A stretch of 64,000 nucleotides of DNA from contig NZ_WRPR01000016.1 in the NCBI RefSeq assembly GCF_010367455.1, forward strand, positions 1-64,000. Reading direction: 5' to 3'. The position numbers and the translations under genes were made by a program. Shown here in pieces: positions 28,707-35,691 of the stretch. Each line of letters starts with the position of its first letter. Positions within the stretch are counted from its first letter, which is position 1. The stretch comes from Candidatus Laterigemmans baculatus (GTDB taxonomy: Bacteria > Planctomycetota > Planctomycetia > Pirellulales > Pirellulaceae). Below the pieces are notes generated by a model. The model searched no databases and was not told the origin of the DNA. It was given only the letters and a program-made list of their open reading frames with translations.

Positions 28707-28779
28707 TCCCCTGTAGCTCAGTTGGTAGAGCAGGCGGCTGTTAACCGCCCTGTCGCAGGTTCGAGTCCTGCCGGGGGAG
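28707..28779 (+). tRNA. tRNA-Asn (GTT)
   Basis: A complete cloverleaf can be drawn. The acceptor stem pairs TCCCCTG with CGGGGGA. The D arm is GCTCAGTTGGTAGAGC. The anticodon stem is GGCGG/CCGCC with loop CTGTTAA (anticodon GTT), and the T arm is GCAGGTTCGAGTCCTGC. The discriminator base is G and the 3' CCA is not encoded. A terminator follows at 28824. It marks the junction between the core-like left part and the accessory right part of the window. Confidence 0.97.
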
Positions 28780-28823
28780 CTTTTTCAATCGTCGGAATCC
28801 CACCGACCCACCAGTTAACACAG

Positions 28824-28854: not shown

Positions 28855-29159
28855 CGTGTTTTCCCCAGTGTTTTGGCCGCTTTGCACGCGTCGGCCGAAA
28901 CCGAGAGCGCTCTCGCCTGCCCTCGCGGCGGTCCCCAAAACCGCTTCCCGGGCCAAAACTCGCCCCGAACTCTCGCGGCTCTCTCTTTGACGCCCGCCAC
29001 AAGTTAACAACCCGCTTGGGTTCGCACCCCAGATGCGACCGTTGTCGAAACTCGAGACTCACAGGTGCTGCCGAGGCTGCCGCTGCGCCTGAGTTCCTCC
29101 GCATCCATCTGTAGGGTATAGTTCTCCCCACAAGCAGTAGCCGGGTCGGGAGGAATGCG
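28855..29159. other. spacer between tRNA terminator and ATPase gene
   Basis: No convincing gene is seen on either strand. The right end carries GGGAGG at about 29148-29153, the ribosome-binding site for the TTG start at 29160. Base composition becomes visibly richer in A/T from here on. A duplicate of the tRNA 3' end was looked for downstream and not found by eye. Confidence 0.5.
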
Positions 29160-30758
29160 TTGGGTAGATTCAGCTTTCATGATCACTTGCTTCGTCGCGA
29201 CCATACGCTGCACGGCGGCATTCTCTTCGGGATCGATGGTCACAAGATCGAGCTTCAGGGGCGGGCAACTCAGGTGCTGGACCATCCGCGTCCTGTCGCT
29301 CAATGCGCCCAGGTCACGGGCATGCCACGAGGGCCTGTTCGAGAAGCCGTCACGCGGATCAGCGGCGCGTTCAGCAAGTTGGGCATCCCGCATTCGCCAG
29401 TCGAGATCCTGATAAACTTAGCCCCCGCGTCACTGGAAAAGGATGGTTCATGGCTCGATTTGCCGCTTGCTGTGCTGATGCTGCAGGTGGCCGGGCTGCT
29501 TCCTGACCTGCCGGAGGATAAGGAAGACAAGTTCATTCTGTTCGGTGAGATCGGAATCCACGGAGAACTAAGGCGGATCCCTGGTGCGCTGTCTCTCGCT
29601 TTCAATGCCAAGCCGGGACAGTCTCTGATTGTGCCTGCGGGCAACGAGAAGGAATGCGCTCTAATTCTGGCGAAGCCGGGTCACGAAGGCTGCGGCGTTT
29701 ATCCAGCAGCTACTTTGGAGGAAGTACTCGACTTCTTTCGAAGCAAGTCGCGGCTCCGAAACGCGCTGCGCGAGCCGATTCGCTTTCAGCCGGTGCTCGA
29801 AAAGGCAGTGGATTTCGGGAAAATCCGAGGTCAGCAGGAAGCGAAGCGCGCAGCAGTAATTGCGGCTGCCGGAGGTCATAATCTGCTGCTCGTTGGCCCG
29901 CCTGGGGAAGGGAAATCGCTGCTTGCATCTGCAATCCCGGGCATTCTCCCTCGTCTGCAAGAATCGGAAATGGTCGAGCTGACGCGGATCTACTCCGCAG
30001 TCGGCCAATTGGGAGACGACGGGAAGGCCGTCACGAGGCGGCCGATCCGGACCGTGCATCACAGCGTTTCAATGCCTGCGCTCGTTGGGGGAGGCAGTGG
30101 GACGCCCCGGCCAGGCGAGATCACGCTCGCGCACCACGGCGTGTTGTTTCTTGACGAACTGCCCGAGTTCTCGCGCCGAACGCTCGAGGCGCTGCGGCAG
30201 CCGCTCGAGTCCGGACGCATTCAGATCACCCGAGTGGAAGCAAGCCTCGAATTCCCCTCTAGATTTACATTAGTTGCCGCGATGAATCCGTGCCCATGTG
30301 GTTATGCGGGGACGGATCGCTGTACGTGTCAGGTTCGCGAGGTGGAAAAGTACCAGCAAAAGATCAGCGGTCCTCTACTCGACCGAATCGATCTCCAGGT
30401 CGGTATGCGACCACTTACGACTGATGAGAGATTTGCTCCGACAAAGGACGGGGAGTCCAATCGCTTGAGAGCCGCGGTGCAGAGAGCTCGAGACAAGCAG
30501 GTCCAGCGGTTCGCGGGAACCTCGATTAGTTGCAACGCCGCGATTCCCGGGGGCACCGTTGCCGACTACTGCCAATTCACCGCCTCGGCATTCGATGAGT
30601 ACAAGCGGATCGTCGATCAATCATCGGTAACGACACGCACAGCTGACAGATTGGCTCGAGTCTCACGGACGATCGCGGATTTGGGAGACCAGGACCAGAT
30701 TGAGGCCGCCCACGTTCTGGAAGCCGAGAAGTTGATGTTAAAATTTGGCCGGGAATGA
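29160..30758 (+). CDS. divergent YifB/ComM-type Mg-chelatase-like AAA+ ATPase
   Basis: The 532-residue protein has an N-terminal ChlI-like domain (LFGIDGHKIELQ, ILINLAPASLEKDG, WLDLPLAVL). An AAA+ module follows with Walker A GPPGEGKS, Walker B GVLFLDELPEF, the NPCPCGY signature, then CTCQVREVEKYQQKISGP and LLDRIDLQV. The C-terminal helical domain has the ARVSRTIADLGD motif. Family member ComM is a branch-migration helicase in natural transformation; this copy has a divergent N-terminal half. The TTG at 29160 is chosen because GGAGG lies at ideal spacing (6 bases); the ATG at 29155 is out of frame. Its stop overlaps the next start (ATGA), so the pair is translationally coupled. Confidence 0.87.
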   Translation: MGRFSFHDHLLRRDHTLHGGILFGIDGHKIELQGRATQVLDHPRPVAQCAQVTGMPRGPVREAVTRISGAFSKLGIPHSPVEILINLAPASLEKDGSWLDLPLAVLMLQVAGLLPDLPEDKEDKFILFGEIGIHGELRRIPGALSLAFNAKPGQSLIVPAGNEKECALILAKPGHEGCGVYPAATLEEVLDFFRSKSRLRNALREPIRFQPVLEKAVDFGKIRGQQEAKRAAVIAAAGGHNLLLVGPPGEGKSLLASAIPGILPRLQESEMVELTRIYSAVGQLGDDGKAVTRRPIRTVHHSVSMPALVGGGSGTPRPGEITLAHHGVLFLDELPEFSRRTLEALRQPLESGRIQITRVEASLEFPSRFTLVAAMNPCPCGYAGTDRCTCQVREVEKYQQKISGPLLDRIDLQVGMRPLTTDERFAPTKDGESNRLRAAVQRARDKQVQRFAGTSISCNAAIPGGTVADYCQFTASAFDEYKRIVDQSSVTTRTADRLARVSRTIADLGDQDQIEAAHVLEAEKLMLKFGRE

Positions 30759-32290
30759 ACGCACAGACTGTTCGAGAGATCCCTTCACCGATGTCAGAAG
30801 TTGAAGTCTTTGTCTGTTCTTTTTGCGAGAAACCGGTTCGCTATCGGCAGGAGCAACGCGGCCGTTCGGGGAAGTGCCCGAGTTGTGCCCAGCCGATCGT
30901 GCTCGTGAACAACCACGACCGGGTGGTCGACGATCAACTCACGACCACGTGGTACTACCGTAGATTGCGGTTGCTTCGGGGGCGTGAAGAGGTTGGCCCT
31001 ATTCCAGACACTCAACTGCTTGAGCTCATCGACGCCGAGCAAATCGACGGCTCTACCGAGGTGATGAGCCCAGAGCTGACGAAGGACACGTGGGTCGAGC
31101 TCGGACGCGTAAAGCTCTCTCTGGTCCGGGAACGGATCGCTCAGAGAGCGGCAGAGCACACAAGGCGGCAAAAGGCCGAAGAGCGGAGGCGTAGAGCCGA
31201 GCTCCAAAATCGTGCAAAGCTGAAACGAGGTATTCGCTCAGCAATTGAGACCGGCAGTCTCTCATCGGGCCACCGTGCAGCGGTTGAGCAATTCGCCCTG
31301 AAGGCCGGCATTCCAGCAGACGAGGTGCAGGCGACAATTTCGAGTGAGTGTGAGGGACTCGTCAGGGAGGTATTCGAGGAAGCTATCGATGACGGCATTC
31401 TCGACCCGCGTGAGGAGGAACAGCTCTCTCAGCTCGCCATCTCACTAGGGGTGGATCTGAAGTTTTCGGAACGCGATCAGCGCAGGATTCTACTTTGCCG
31501 CCTCGCCTACGAACTGGACTCCGGTAATCACCAGCCCGACACCGCGAGCTCTGTGCCATTCAAGTTAGGCTCAAACGAACAGCTGCTCTTTCATGTCCCG
31601 GTCCAGTGGCACGAGATCGTGTCCTTAAAGCGTCCGGCCGGGATTCCGCTCGGCGGCGATTCCTACCTGAAGGAAATTGGCAGTGGTGTCGGCTACCTGA
31701 CCACAAAGCAGCTTTCCATGGTCGGAGATCTACAGTCGAAGAAATTCACACTGAGCTCTGTCCAGAAGGTCACCCGCTACGCGGACGGGGTCCTCTTTAA
31801 TCGCTCGTCTGGTCGCAGTGTCTTTTTGGAAATGAACCCGATGTCCGAGATGCAGGAGCAGTTTGCCCTGGTTGCCGAACATGCATGTAGCGGCCAGCCA
31901 GTGCTCGGCCATGCGGCGACGTCCAGCTTCATCCCTGAGGTTGTCAACGCTGAACTCGTTGCAGTGTCGGGCGTCTCAGGCAGTCGCATTCAGCACTCCG
32001 GTGCCGACCCAAAATATACGTTCCGAGTGGTCGGTGACTTCGTCGGGAATCGAAGTGCTTTAATTGCACGGCTGAATATCGGTGACGAGGTCATGCTGCA
32101 TCGTGAGCCAAGCAATCCAGCCGATCCCAACGCAGTCGCGGTGTACGATCTATCGCGGAACCAACTGGGCTACCTGAAGCGTGACGTCGCCTCGTGGTTC
32201 GCGCCGATTCTCGACCGAAAGCCGAGCGTGGAGGCAAAGGCACACGCGGTTACATCGGCCGGATCTCTCATCGTCGGCGTTTACTTGTAG
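30755..32290 (+). CDS. multidomain zinc ribbon-GYF-like-TerB-like-PH-like-HIRAN protein
   Basis: The 511-residue protein can be parsed into: a CX2C...CX2C zinc ribbon (CSFC at ~22, CPSC at ~41); a GYF_2-like domain (~65-125, WYYRRLRLL...VGPIPDTQL); a charged coiled coil (~130-160); a helical TerB-like region (~165-245, EEAIDDGILDPREEEQL); a PH/GRAM-like beta domain (~265-370, GYLTTKQLSMVG); and a C-terminal HIRAN domain (~420-510, REPSNPADPNAVAV then LGYLKRD). HIRAN domains of HLTF/Rad5 bind DNA 3' ends at stalled forks; in bacteria they often sit in mobile or defence loci. No nuclease or helicase motif is seen in this protein itself. It is translationally coupled to the ComM-like ATPase, suggesting a DNA-processing adaptor. 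Domain limits are by eye. Confidence 0.75.
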   Translation: MNAQTVREIPSPMSEVEVFVCSFCEKPVRYRQEQRGRSGKCPSCAQPIVLVNNHDRVVDDQLTTTWYYRRLRLLRGREEVGPIPDTQLLELIDAEQIDGSTEVMSPELTKDTWVELGRVKLSLVRERIAQRAAEHTRRQKAEERRRRAELQNRAKLKRGIRSAIETGSLSSGHRAAVEQFALKAGIPADEVQATISSECEGLVREVFEEAIDDGILDPREEEQLSQLAISLGVDLKFSERDQRRILLCRLAYELDSGNHQPDTASSVPFKLGSNEQLLFHVPVQWHEIVSLKRPAGIPLGGDSYLKEIGSGVGYLTTKQLSMVGDLQSKKFTLSSVQKVTRYADGVLFNRSSGRSVFLEMNPMSEMQEQFALVAEHACSGQPVLGHAATSSFIPEVVNAELVAVSGVSGSRIQHSGADPKYTFRVVGDFVGNRSALIARLNIGDEVMLHREPSNPADPNAVAVYDLSRNQLGYLKRDVASWFAPILDRKPSVEAKAHAVTSAGSLIVGVYL

Positions 32291-32649: not shown

Positions 32650-33732
32650 TCACGCAGCTCGGCGGTACGACCGGAGCAGTCCGCCGAGGCGCTCGGTGGT
32701 CTCTATCGGAGCTTCCGGATCTAGTGGTCGTTCGAAAGGGATGATCAGCCGGTTGTCGAGACCCTGGTGGTTGCGCTCCGTGTGGTAATGCACCAGATAC
32801 TCGCGAACCGCATTGCGGAGCGACCCTTCGCCGAAGAGGATGAGCCGGTCGAGGCACTCCGGCTTGAGCGAGCCGAAAAACCTTTCAATGTGGGCGTTCA
32901 GGTTCGGGCTGCGTGACGGCAGGCGAAGGGACTTGATGCCCTCGCCACGCAAGAGGGTTCGAAACGCTCCGGTAAACTTCGGGTCGCGGTCCATGATCAG
33001 GTACCGCTTGCCGCTCAAGAATCCGTCCTCGAAGTTGGTCAGCTCGCGTGCTGTCTGCTGCATCCATTCTTCAGTCGGATTCGGCGTGCAGCCGGCGAAG
33101 TGGACGCGGCGGGTCTTCAGCTCCATAAAGAAGAGTAGATAGAAGGTCGTCGGCCCCGACTTGGTCCAGACTTCCACCGTGGTGAAATCGACCGACGCCA
33201 GCACGTCCCAGTGAGCCTTCAAAAACGTCTCCCAAGAGCCGGTCCGCTTGCGTTTCGGGGCCGGCTCGATGCCTTGGCCTTTGAGGATGTTTTCAACCGT
33301 CGTGTCGCTGATCTCATAGCCAACGTTCGCCAGTGCACCCTGGATGCGATCGCAACCCCACGACGGGTTCTCCTTGGCGAATTTCACCACAAGATCGACG
33401 ATCGCTTGGCGAACGCGCGGTCGGCCCTGCCGCTTCTCCTGCCGGTCGGAGTAGTCCCACTTCTTCGCCACCAACTGGCGGTGCCAGCGGAGAATCGTGT
33501 CCGGCGTGAACAGCGCGGTGACTTCCTGCATTCGTTTGCGGCCGAGCACTTTGCCTTTGACCGTCAATCGCCGCCGCTGGTCATCGGTCAGTAGGATTCG
33601 ATTCTTGCCGCAATGCTCCTTCAGGATGGCAATCTCCGTGAGAAGGTAATCAATTGCCTCTTGTTGGTCACGGTTCATCCAGCCGGCGAGGATCAGAAGC
33701 AGAAGATGACACGGCTGCAGCACGAGGTTCAT
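32650..33732 (-). CDS. DDE integrase-core transposase
   Basis: The 360-residue protein has an N-terminal helix-turn-helix region (LTDDQRRRLTVKG, then FTPDTILRWHRQL) and an rve integrase catalytic core. The DDE residues are apparent in VDFTTVEVW, MDRDPKF and NAHIERFFGSLK. It would catalyse cut-and-paste or copy-out transposition of its element. The start at 33732 (ATG) is preferred over the frame to 33900, whose extra residues have no family resemblance. It ends in SYRRAA, the same C-terminus as the broken transposase at 34702, showing that the two belong to one family. Single-ORF organisation, no frameshift. Confidence 0.87.
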   Translation of the reverse strand: MNLVLQPCHLLLLILAGWMNRDQQEAIDYLLTEIAILKEHCGKNRILLTDDQRRRLTVKGKVLGRKRMQEVTALFTPDTILRWHRQLVAKKWDYSDRQEKRQGRPRVRQAIVDLVVKFAKENPSWGCDRIQGALANVGYEISDTTVENILKGQGIEPAPKRKRTGSWETFLKAHWDVLASVDFTTVEVWTKSGPTTFYLLFFMELKTRRVHFAGCTPNPTEEWMQQTARELTNFEDGFLSGKRYLIMDRDPKFTGAFRTLLRGEGIKSLRLPSRSPNLNAHIERFFGSLKPECLDRLILFGEGSLRNAVREYLVHYHTERNHQGLDNRLIIPFERPLDPEAPIETTERLGGLLRSYRRAA

Positions 33733-33914
33733 TGGCGGGGCTGGATGCGGCGGCTGGGAGACGCCTAGCGAGCGGACGGGGAGGTGGCGACAATCGCTGC
33801 TAGTCGTATCTGCTCGGTTTTCCGCTCTGCCCTTCCGCACGAATTTCTTGATGGCCATCGGCATCGACACCAGCGTCGACTTCGCAGAAGAACTGCGCAC
33901 TCATGGTCCGCATT

Positions 33915-34322
33915 TCAAACGTCTGGCGGAAACATGCCAAATAGCTGCTCTGCCTGCCGTATCCGCAATCGCCGCTCGTGATTCAGGGCTAGCGCGAGGA
34001 TCGTTGCCCGGCCGATCTTCGTCTTCCCAATCAGCGAATAGTCGTCCCAGACAAAGTGGTCAGACCAGCAATCTGTGCGCGGATTGAATAGAGGAATGGA
34101 TTCAGAGCTGCCCGGCGAGTCGACCTTCATGCGATCGGCTTTGTGAAGATTGCAGCTCGGGCACGCCCAGGCGAGATTGTCGAATTCACTCGATCCGCCG
34201 GCGCAACGAGGCACGACGTGCTCGACGTGGAACGTGGCTCCCTGCAGCGACTGGTGCATTTGGCAATACTCGCACCGGTTGCCGGCTCGAGCAGCGACCT
34301 CTAGCTGACGATTAGGCGGCAA
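33915..34322 (-). CDS. HNH endonuclease
   Basis: The 135-residue protein has the HNH/zinc-finger arrangement CEYC ... FHVEHVVPRCAGG ... FDNLAWACPSCN, giving two CX2C zinc half-sites and the catalytic HVEHV region. The start is a TTG (34322), 11 bases after the stop of the small gene 34334-34555; no better ATG lies upstream of the motif. The C-terminal half (FNPRTDCWSDHFVWDD) is typical of the stand-alone HNH family. A DNA-cutting role is likely, possibly in defence or mobility; no intron context is seen. Confidence 0.85.
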   Translation of the reverse strand: MPPNRQLEVAARAGNRCEYCQMHQSLQGATFHVEHVVPRCAGGSSEFDNLAWACPSCNLHKADRMKVDSPGSSESIPLFNPRTDCWSDHFVWDDYSLIGKTKIGRATILALALNHERRLRIRQAEQLFGMFPPDV

Positions 34323-34333
34323 TGAACGGGATC

Positions 34334-34555
34334 CTACGGTTTGCGCCGCAGCAGGTGAAGTGCCTCGGCCCGCACGAGCGAAAGCTGCTCGCTAAGTTCC
34401 GCGAGCGCCGCCAGGTCGGCCCGTTCCTGATCGCTCAGCTGACCTTCGTTGTTTCGGTCCATCAACTCCTGAAGGCGTTTGTCAGCATGTTCCGGCAGGC
34501 GTAGCATCGTGATGCTTTCAACCCATTCCAGGGGGGCGTCCACCGTCACATTCAT
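34334..34555 (-). CDS. small hypothetical protein paired with HNH endonuclease
   Basis: The 73-residue acidic, mostly helical protein (ADKRLQELMDRNNEG, LSDQERADLAALAEL) has GGAG 7 bases before its ATG. It directly precedes the HNH gene with an 11-base gap, a layout reminiscent of small-partner/toxin pairs. An antitoxin or regulatory role is a guess. No DNA-binding motif is obvious. Confidence 0.7.
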   Translation of the reverse strand: MNVTVDAPLEWVESITMLRLPEHADKRLQELMDRNNEGQLSDQERADLAALAELSEQLSLVRAEALHLLRRKP

Positions 34556-34701: not shown

Positions 34702-35691
34702 CTATGCCGCCCGCCGGTAAGACTTCAGGTGGCCGCCCAGTTCGCTGTAGCACTCGAGCCGGTGCTTCGCCAAGTCGACCGCAGGCGGCTCTCCACCATC
34801 CCGCACTGGCGGCAAATGGTCCCGTTCGGTGTGGCCACGGCGGTGATTGTACCAGTCCTGCGCGACATGAAGGATGTGGTCCAGGTGCCGCTCGCTGATT
34901 ACGCAGAACGCGTTCAGGACCTCGTGTTTCAACGTCTGGATCACCCGCTCGACGAATGCCTGCAGGTTCGGTGACCGCGGGCACGTCTTCTTGATCTTGC
35001 AGCCGGTGGACCGGAAGACCTCGTCGAACGGGGCTCCGTACTTCGTGTCCTGGTCTCGCTGCACGATCTCGCGGGGCAGGATTTCCTCCTGCAGACGCAT
35101 TTGGAAATTGCAGGCTTGCTGCGTCGTCCAGTCGGCGTTCGGATTTGCCGTGCAGGGCGAGACCCAGATTCGCCTCGTCCCCACGTGGATAAAGACGAGG
35201 AAATACAGGTCGACCATGCCTGTGAGCGTCCACTTTCGTTTGCAGGCGAAGTCGCATTGCCACAGGGTGTCAGCGTCGCGTTTCAGAAAATCGGAGCAGG
35301 TATCCGGGTGGTCCTGCGGCTGCGGCCCGAGCCCCGCTTCCACGAGCACGTTCTTGACGGTCTGGCGGGACACCGTGTGGCCAAGCCGCAGCATCGCCTG
35401 AATGATCTTCGTGTAGCCCCAGCCGGTCTCTTTCCGGATGCGGATGATCGTCTCGCTCAGGCTCTCGTCGATTTGTGGGCGCCCGGGCTTATTGCCCGTC
35501 TTCGACTTCGGCCGCTTCTCCGGGGTCTCTTCGATGCTCCGCACCTACCGGCGGAACGTCGAATAGCTGACGATCGAGATTAGGTCCTTGATGCCCGGTC
35601 CGAGCTTCTTGCCGTGGCGGATCAGCCGTCGGCGCTCCTGATTGTTCAGCGTGATCCGCTGGGGCTGGTGGATGGCGGCGGAATGGCACCG
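34702..35691 (-). pseudogene. broken DDE transposase (in-frame TAG)
   Basis: An intact-looking 280-codon integrase core (WQCDFACKRKW, QRDQDTKYG, NLQAFVERVIQTLK) begins at a GTG at 35544. The frame clearly continues upstream through a TAG (35545-35547) into the expected N-terminal helical region (RITLNNQERRRLIRHGKK, then SYSTFRR). Aligned by eye with the intact transposase at 32650, the TAG falls where that protein has Trp in TILRWHRQL, so a TGG-to-TAG change is the simplest explanation. Upstream of 35691 the frame hits TGA with no usual start codon, so the 5' end is also damaged. Same C-terminal SYRRAA as its neighbour. Confidence 0.82.

What the first reader, a model, noticed from the sequence alone, without database searches (positions are those of the whole stretch)
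29160..32290. Coupled ComM-like ATPase and HIRAN-containing adaptor: candidate DNA-processing or defence module
A divergent YifB/ComM-type AAA+ gene with a TTG start and ideal Shine-Dalgarno overlaps by ATGA a gene for a zinc ribbon-GYF-like-TerB-like-PH-like-HIRAN protein. ComM is known as a branch-migration motor, and HIRAN domains bind DNA ends at stalled forks. The pair sits beside a tRNA gene and transposases, as defence or mobile modules often do. That they form one functional system is inferred from the coupling and context.
Basis: partly seen in the sequence, partly recalled or inferred. Interest (0 to 1): 0.8.

Follow-up and report, generated by a model that had tools for sequence, protein, structure and literature searches.

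The report
ComM-like motor paired with HIRAN protein
Two overlapping genes in a planctomycete encode a DNA-pumping ring enzyme of the ComM type and a protein with a DNA-structure-binding HIRAN domain, and relatives show that the two are kept together, which suggests an undescribed two-part DNA-processing machine.

Summary
ORF1 (29160-30758, TTG start, GGAGG six bases upstream) and ORF2 (30755-32290) overlap by ATGA. ORF1 is not the housekeeping ComM/YifB: the genome has a second, higher-scoring YifB elsewhere (566 vs 423 bits). ORF1 belongs to a separate, patchy YifB clade ("YifB2", 100/100). Most YifB2 genes stand alone. In Pirellulaceae one YifB2 subclade (100/97) gained ORF2: in 241 family genomes, 8 full-length ORF2 copies in 7 genomes all lie directly behind YifB2 (one YifB2 N-truncated, one with an in-frame TGA); three decayed ORF2 remnants lack it. 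Both genes are under purifying selection (dN/dS 0.02-0.04 and 0.07-0.10). ORF2 is zinc ribbon, GYF-like, TerB-like, PH-like, HIRAN, the middle parts on weak evidence. YifB2 models as full-length ComM (Z 32) with ATPase residues kept.

So "one functional unit" is supported. "Defence" is only hinted: one pair adjoins a complete IetAS system, one an AAA_21 ATPase; no significant enrichment. Best mechanism (inferred): ORF2 directs a ComM-like ring translocase to branched DNA or DNA ends, a two-protein parallel to HLTF.

The parts
29149..29153 (+). Shine-Dalgarno GGAGG, six bases before the TTG start
   Evidence: read directly
29160..30758 (+). YifB2: ComM/YifB-type AAA+ ATPase paralogue, 532 aa, TTG start
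   Evidence: TIGR00368 422.9 bits; ComM 8rxd E 6.5e-85; model Z 32 to ComM
29193..29783 (+). N-terminal Lon-like (ChlI) domain, residues 12-208; in ComM the hexamerisation module
   Evidence: VIA Z 22.0 to ComM Lon domain 8rxs; ChlI E 5e-20; role in ComM from heading of PMC11612176
29811..30422 (+). AAA+ domain, residues 218-421 (Walker A K252/S253, E333, R346, R358, Cys 378/380/388/390)
   Evidence: Mg_chelatase E 3.4e-86; these residues in 32 of 32 YifB2 rows
30453..30725 (+). Mg_chelatase_C domain, residues 432-522 (putative arginine finger R493)
   Evidence: PF13335 E 5.5e-19; R493 32 of 32
30755..32290 (+). HIRAN partner (putative adaptor), 511 aa, overlaps YifB2 by ATGA
30806..30904 (+). 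zinc ribbon, residues 18-50 (C21, C24, C41, C44)
   Evidence: Cys 8 of 8
30950..31081 (+). GYF-like domain, residues 66-109
   Evidence: GYF_2 weak, 3 of 8 members, best E 0.0036
31217..31519 (+). TerB-like helical bundle, about residues 155-255
   Evidence: TerB 2 of 8 members, best E 0.0023; helical in the low-confidence model
31565..31909 (+). PH-like domain, residues 271-385
   Evidence: VIA Z 11.8 to myotubularin-related protein 2 residues 78-190; low-confidence model
32036..32221 (+). HIRAN domain, residues 428-489
   Evidence: PF08797 E 2.5e-15; HLTF HIRAN E 1.2e-6, Z 9.8
28707..28780 (+). tRNA-Asn(gtt), context only
   Evidence: no exact repeat of its end found

Best explanation
A two-gene DNA-remodelling unit. 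Shown: ORF1 is a full-length ComM-fold AAA+ protein with the ATPase and one pore residue kept, but a paralogue separate from the other, higher-scoring YifB of the same genome. ORF2 is a multi-domain protein ending in HIRAN. The two stay adjacent, in the same order, at all full-length homologous loci found and are both under purifying selection. Inferred: YifB2 assembles as a hexameric ring that translocates on DNA and drives branch migration. ORF2 binds it through its zinc-ribbon/GYF/TerB/PH part, and its HIRAN domain recognises an ssDNA end or a fork or three-way junction. ORF2 thereby loads or orients a motor that on its own (ComM) is bidirectional. The outcome would be remodelling of D-loops, forks or recombination intermediates, possibly on incoming DNA. 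The wider YifB2 clade is found without ORF2, so ORF2 is read as an added targeting or regulatory subunit.
For: Adjacency: 8 of 8 full-length ORF2 copies in 7 of 241 Pirellulaceae genomes; the 7 partner genomes are all among the 9 YifB2 genomes of 241, hypergeometric p 4e-12. Outside genus g214, DNA similarity between loci stops at the pair. Paired YifB2 (7 rows) are one clade, 100/97, within YifB2, 100/100. dN/dS 0.023-0.037 and 0.065-0.102. Motor: Z 32 to ComM over 468-473 residues; Walker K and S, catalytic Glu, sensor-3 Arg, Ps1-beta Arg and putative Arg finger in 32 of 32 rows (ComM residues from PMC11612176 sections 10 and 12, mapped). HIRAN: matches HLTF HIRAN, N454 and D457 8 of 8. Precedents: HIRAN is needed for HLTF fork regression and works when added in trans (PMC4666394 passages); ComM is bidirectional and in vivo factors may set its direction (PMC11784430 passages); protein interactions of ComM in vivo are less documented (PMC11612176 section 17).
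Against: No physical interaction shown; no complex could be predicted. HLTF pocket residues are only partly kept: N91 position 8 of 8, but the Y93 position is A/H/Y/N and the N90 position S/T/K/A; Y72 also seems absent by rough register. So HLTF-style end capping is doubtful. ORF2 model has mean pLDDT 56. 24 of 24 stand-alone YifB2 loci with enough downstream DNA lack ORF2, so the motor does not need it. One paired YifB2 lacks 214 N-terminal residues while its ORF2 stays open, and one has an in-frame TGA. One of three further ComM DNA-contact positions (E394) is mostly acidic in YifB2.
Confidence: 0.5

Rival explanations
1. The pair is an anti-mobile-element defence module: ORF2 senses phage or plasmid replication or recombination intermediates (ends, forks) and YifB2 remodels or strips them.
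For: Patchy (7 of 241 family genomes), partner remnants in G515, G748 and G750, two copies in G745, variable surroundings. One pair adjoins a complete IetAS system (IetS 6e-63, IetA 9e-70), one an AAA_21 ATPase (PADLOC AriA/PtuA-like), one lies 3.7 kb from a PIN-TPR-GreABC gene. HIRAN of ORF2 hits candidate-defence models PDC-M03B, best 2.4e-8.
Against: Enrichment not significant (2 of 7 genomes vs 0 of 12, p 0.12). Neither gene matches a named PADLOC system over its length. No nuclease or toxin domain found in the pair. At the stand-alone loci the 25 of 37 matched PADLOC families shown are kinase-type.
Confidence: 0.3
2. The pair is a transformation/recombination accessory: a second ComM with a helper, promoting integration of foreign ssDNA.
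For: Full ComM fold and residues; ComM promotes branch migration in transformation (PMC11784430 passages, PMC11612176 abstract).
Against: The genome already has another YifB and YifB2 is rare. Competence genes were not searched.
Confidence: 0.3
3. Adjacency is only inherited operon order after one chance joining of transcription units; the proteins act separately.
For: The partner appears gained once, so adjacency could be inherited; one YifB2 copy is truncated while ORF2 stays open (L120).
Against: Outside one genus the surroundings change and the pair does not; the three remnants have lost YifB2 and part of ORF2; ORF2 and YifB2 both constrained.
Confidence: 0.15
4. ORF1 is the ordinary housekeeping YifB of this lineage and ORF2 an unrelated neighbour.
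For: TIGR00368 above cut-off.
Against: Second, higher-scoring YifB in the same genome; separate clade; in 21 YifB2- or remnant-bearing genomes tested, 19 have a long second YifB of 495-622 bits and two (G641, G750) fragments.
Confidence: 0.02

Closest known systems
ComM / YifB (TIGR00368; PDB 8rxd, 8rxt, Legionella ComM)
   Same: Lon-like domain, AAA+ with embedded zinc Cys, Mg-chelatase C-terminus; full-length Z 32; ATPase and Ps1-beta residues kept
   Different: Separate clade and additional copy; Walker A GPPGEGKS where ComM has GAPGSGKT; divergent N-terminus; a partner gene in one subclade
HLTF HIRAN (PDB 4s0n, 4xzf, 6kcs)
   Same: HIRAN fold and core motif with N454 and D457; pairing of HIRAN with a DNA translocase
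   Different: Separate protein, not fused to an SF2 motor; stacking tyrosines not kept; zinc ribbon, GYF-, TerB- and PH-like domains in front
PADLOC candidate PDC-M03B (matches the HIRAN region)
   Same: HIRAN region only, E 2.4e-8
   Different: No match outside HIRAN; no PADLOC model covers ORF1 plus ORF2
IetAS
   Same: A two-gene ATPase-containing system adjoining one pair copy
   Different: Different AAA family (PF00004) and a subtilase partner

Membership tests
YifB/ComM family (TIGR00368) | score above the curated family cut-off | tested here: met
   422.9 vs 362.4 bits; the model is over cut-off in 8 of 14 control genomes
YifB/ComM family (TIGR00368) | Lon-like, AAA+ and Mg_chelatase_C domains in order, same fold as ComM | tested here: met
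YifB/ComM family (TIGR00368) | ATPase residues (Walker A K, catalytic E, sensor-3 R, Arg finger) | tested here: met
   32 of 32 YifB2 rows, mapped from PMC11612176 by the alignment
housekeeping YifB/ComM orthologue | the lineage's canonical copy, inside the ordinary clade | tested here: not met
   second copy at C100 with 566 bits; separate clade 100/100; PRK09862 equivalog 323.6 vs 530
YifB/ComM family (TIGR00368) | branch-migration activity | not testable with these tools
   needs purified protein
HIRAN (PF08797) | score above the Pfam cut-off | tested here: met
   56.5 vs 24.7 bits; 8 of 8 ORF2 proteins match at E up to 0.5
HIRAN (PF08797) | HLTF DNA-pocket residues N90, N91, Y93 | tested here: inconclusive
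   N91 kept 8 of 8; N90 and Y93 positions vary
known anti-phage systems (PADLOC-DB 2.0.0) | full-length match of the pair to a named system | tested here: not met
   only partial matches
tRNA-integrated genomic island | direct repeat of the tRNA 3' end at the far side | tested here: inconclusive
   exact 16-30 nt of the tRNA-Asn end not repeated in the window nor on the + strand to contig position 83000; inexact repeats and the rest of the 128,610-base contig not searched

The most novel reading that the evidence does not exclude
A bacterial two-protein counterpart of HLTF/Rad5-type fork remodellers: a ComM-family hexameric ring aimed by a separate HIRAN adaptor at branched DNA or ends, carried as a small mobile unit that acts on replicating or recombining foreign DNA. 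It would be a dedicated partner protein for a ComM-family motor, of which I found none described in the papers searched.
Probability: 0.25. Interest if true: 0.8.

Novelty: new variant of a known kind. Interest (0 to 1): 0.6.

Why it matters
ComM-type rings move both ways on DNA, and how they are loaded or oriented in cells is open (passages). A conserved partner with a HIRAN domain would be a direct candidate for that role and makes it testable with two purified proteins. It would also give prokaryotic HIRAN domains, called uncharacterized in PMC11090510 (passage), a setting with a defined motor. The YifB2 clade itself suggests that a recombination motor was duplicated, became patchily distributed and was then given a partner in one lineage.

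Tried and rejected
Tried without result: no paired relative in phage, plasmid or viral collections. ORF2 in plasmids matched 6 Sphingobium records over residues 387-506 or 432-506 only; a close ORF2 relative found nothing in plasmids at 1e-8. ORF2 was not searched in the phage records. Plasmid and phage matches of ORF1 are YifB-type at 35-50% identity in the rows shown, 40 of 52 and 20 of 30 records; their clade was not tested. Viral contigs gave none. ORF2 alone missed all 293 other genomes of the phylum sample at E 1e-8; the paired genomes were found only by the family search, so the first impression that the pair is unique to the window was wrong. The genome search scores only the best few first-look candidates per genome (4 to 6), so absences are as good as that filter. 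L105 and L106 (33-34% identity) were dropped as not YifB2. tRNA end repeat: none exact. Terminal repeats at the edges of the shared segment: none obvious by eye. Profile search of stand-alone flanks gave only weak hits, best 0.011 in L092 and 0.019 in L066/L097, taken as chance.

Rejected: housekeeping YifB; accidental ORF2 (purifying selection). Defence as settled function: not rejected, but not significant. Set aside from the neighbour count: kinase-type hits; the window's HNH gene, which hits PtuB models at up to 5e-13 with no PtuA beside it; an ABC transporter ATPase in L123. Counting one more pair genome (the window's HNH, or the PIN-TPR-GreABC gene of G745) would give 3 of 7 against 0 of 12, p 0.036, but the PIN gene came from a Pfam scan that the stand-alone set did not get, so I do not use it. 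In some searches only the first 25 of 48 and of 37 families are shown, so further hits may be hidden on both sides. Paper search was useless because 'comm' matches common words.
Full report
What is there. ORF1 (29160-30758, 532 aa) begins with TTG six bases after GGAGG, and its stop lies inside the ATGA where ORF2 (30755-32290, 511 aa) begins. ORF1 scores 422.9 bits against the YifB model TIGR00368 (cut-off 362.4) and has ChlI, Mg_chelatase and Mg_chelatase_C domains. ORF2 has a clear HIRAN domain (E 2.5e-15) and a weak GYF match. Two of its 8 relatives and self give weak TerB matches, and its model has a PH-like and a HIRAN-like domain (mean pLDDT only 56).

Not the housekeeping gene. The window's genome (5.76 Mb, 153 contigs, 96% complete) holds two YifB genes: one at C100 with 566.5 bits and the window copy with 422.6. 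In 297 genomes of the class the window protein has relatives at 56-65% identity in 11 other genomes, N-terminus included (G335 by two frames), while the next matches reach 47%. The family searches added G641, G659, G745, G747, G751 and G624; G617 is L099 again. A tree of 45 rows puts 31 'YifB2' rows in one clade (100/100) apart from 14 ordinary YifB. Of 21 YifB2- or remnant-bearing genomes tested, 19 also have a long, higher-scoring YifB (495-622 bits) and two, G641 and G750, have fragments. YifB2 occurs mainly in Planctomycetota, with one bin labelled Victivallis and two Hydrogenedentota (labels of metagenome bins).

The partner. With the same contig counted once, I hold 36 YifB2 loci in 35 genomes (window; L059-L069; L086-L088, L090-L096, L098, L099, L101-L104; L119-L123, L125; L137; L038; L118 is L096 again). 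Eight have ORF2 directly downstream: window, L096, L119, L120, L121, L122, L123, L125. In 24 others no ORF2 relative is seen by tblastn at 1e-3; the profile search gave only chance-level hits. In four (L086, L102, L104, L137) the contig ends too soon to tell. The reverse view: among 241 genomes of the family (Pirellulaceae, by the label of L096, whose genome is G647) 11 match ORF2 at E 1e-12. Seven hold full-length copies (8 in all), every one behind YifB2. In L120 that YifB2 lacks residues 1-214 and in L123 it has an in-frame TGA. Three hold fragments: G515 (residues 243-510, frameshifted), G748 (167-510, one TGA), G750 (313-510). No YifB2 adjoins them and none is found in these genomes at 1e-115; the YifB pieces of G750 are fragments. 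One (G581) shares only the N-terminal zinc ribbon-GYF part in another protein. The overlap is four bases in the window, L096 and L125; the gap is 5 bases in L119, L121 and L122 and 19 in L123.

Unit, not accident. The seven paired YifB2 rows of the tree form one clade, 100/97 (the truncated L120 was left out). By blastn, DNA similarity between loci outside genus g214 stays within the pair. Within g214 it runs from about 160-300 bases before YifB2 to about 131 after ORF2 in most comparisons and then breaks off, except where loci are syntenic (L119/L124) or share other scattered segments; no terminal repeats are obvious. dN/dS between g214 copies is 0.023-0.037 for YifB2 (3 comparisons) and 0.065-0.102 for ORF2 (6 comparisons); against the window dS is saturated. 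ORF2 evolves faster, as an adaptor or sensor might.

How it may work. The YifB2 model (mean pLDDT 81, pTM 0.76) matches Legionella ComM over nearly its whole length, Z 32.1 and 31.8, 468-473 residues, rmsd 3.1-3.3, and the ComM Lon-like domain with Z 22. Residues equivalent to ComM K224, the catalytic Glu, R316, R328 and R463 (PMC11612176, sections 10 and 12 read; mapping) are present in 32 of 32 rows, as are four zinc-loop Cys. Of three further suggested DNA contacts, the K397 and K401 positions are mostly basic and the E394 position (R366 in ComM) is not. HIRAN of HLTF binds ssDNA and forks, is needed for fork regression and works when added in trans (PMC4666394, passages). ComM translocates in both directions and extra factors may set its direction in cells (PMC11784430, passages); its protein interactions in vivo are less documented (PMC11612176 section 17). 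I therefore infer that ORF2 recruits or orients the YifB2 ring at branched DNA or ends. The conserved HIRAN core (N454, D457 in 8 of 8) speaks for nucleic-acid binding; the loss of the HLTF stacking tyrosine Y93 in 6 of 8 speaks against identical end recognition.

What it is for. G751 has a complete IetAS system 269 bases beyond ORF2, G747 an AAA_21 ATPase, and G745 a PIN-TPR-GreABC protein about 3.7 kb away, behind a Mu-type transposase. I scanned 61 neighbour ORFs at 8 pair loci and 88 at 12 stand-alone loci against PADLOC at 1e-10. Setting aside kinases, an ABC ATPase and the window's HNH gene, 2 pair genomes of 7 and none of 12 stand-alone loci show such neighbours, p 0.12; the lists show only 25 families each. 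Defence and recombination roles are both open.

In print. Full-text searches for HIRAN with TerB, HIRAN domain with Mg chelatase, and HIRAN with YifB returned 0 papers; YifB with branch migration 3, seen as a listing only. A MoxR-clade survey mentions YifB once, as a sub-clade (PMC7159879, passage). The library holds only open-licence papers, so absence is not proof.

Noticed in passing
33915-34322 (-) with 34334-34555 (-): HNH endonuclease gene (PF01844 E 2.7e-11, PtuB-like in PADLOC at 5e-13) with a small ORF just upstream, between two integrase-core transposases.
   Followed up: partly
32650-33900 (-), 34702-35544 (-): Two different rve_3 integrase-core transposases next to the pair.
   Followed up: partly
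L119 4698-7289 and 3682-4683: Complete IetAS defence system directly beside the pair in a Pirellulaceae genome.
   Followed up: yes
L120, L121: One genome (G745) carries two copies of the pair about 4.8 Mb apart; in one the YifB2 has lost its first 214 residues while ORF2 stays open.
   Followed up: partly
L061, L123, L069, L087: YifB2 genes with a single in-frame stop or frameshift, possible pseudogenes or sequencing errors.
   Followed up: no
L127 1029-2219: A protein sharing only the N-terminal zinc ribbon-GYF part of ORF2, with a different C-terminus and no Pfam match at 0.001.
   Followed up: no
L038 9970-11691: The most distant YifB2 (G145) carries an inserted extra Cys-rich, zinc-ribbon-like stretch in the AAA+ zinc loop.
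   Followed up: no
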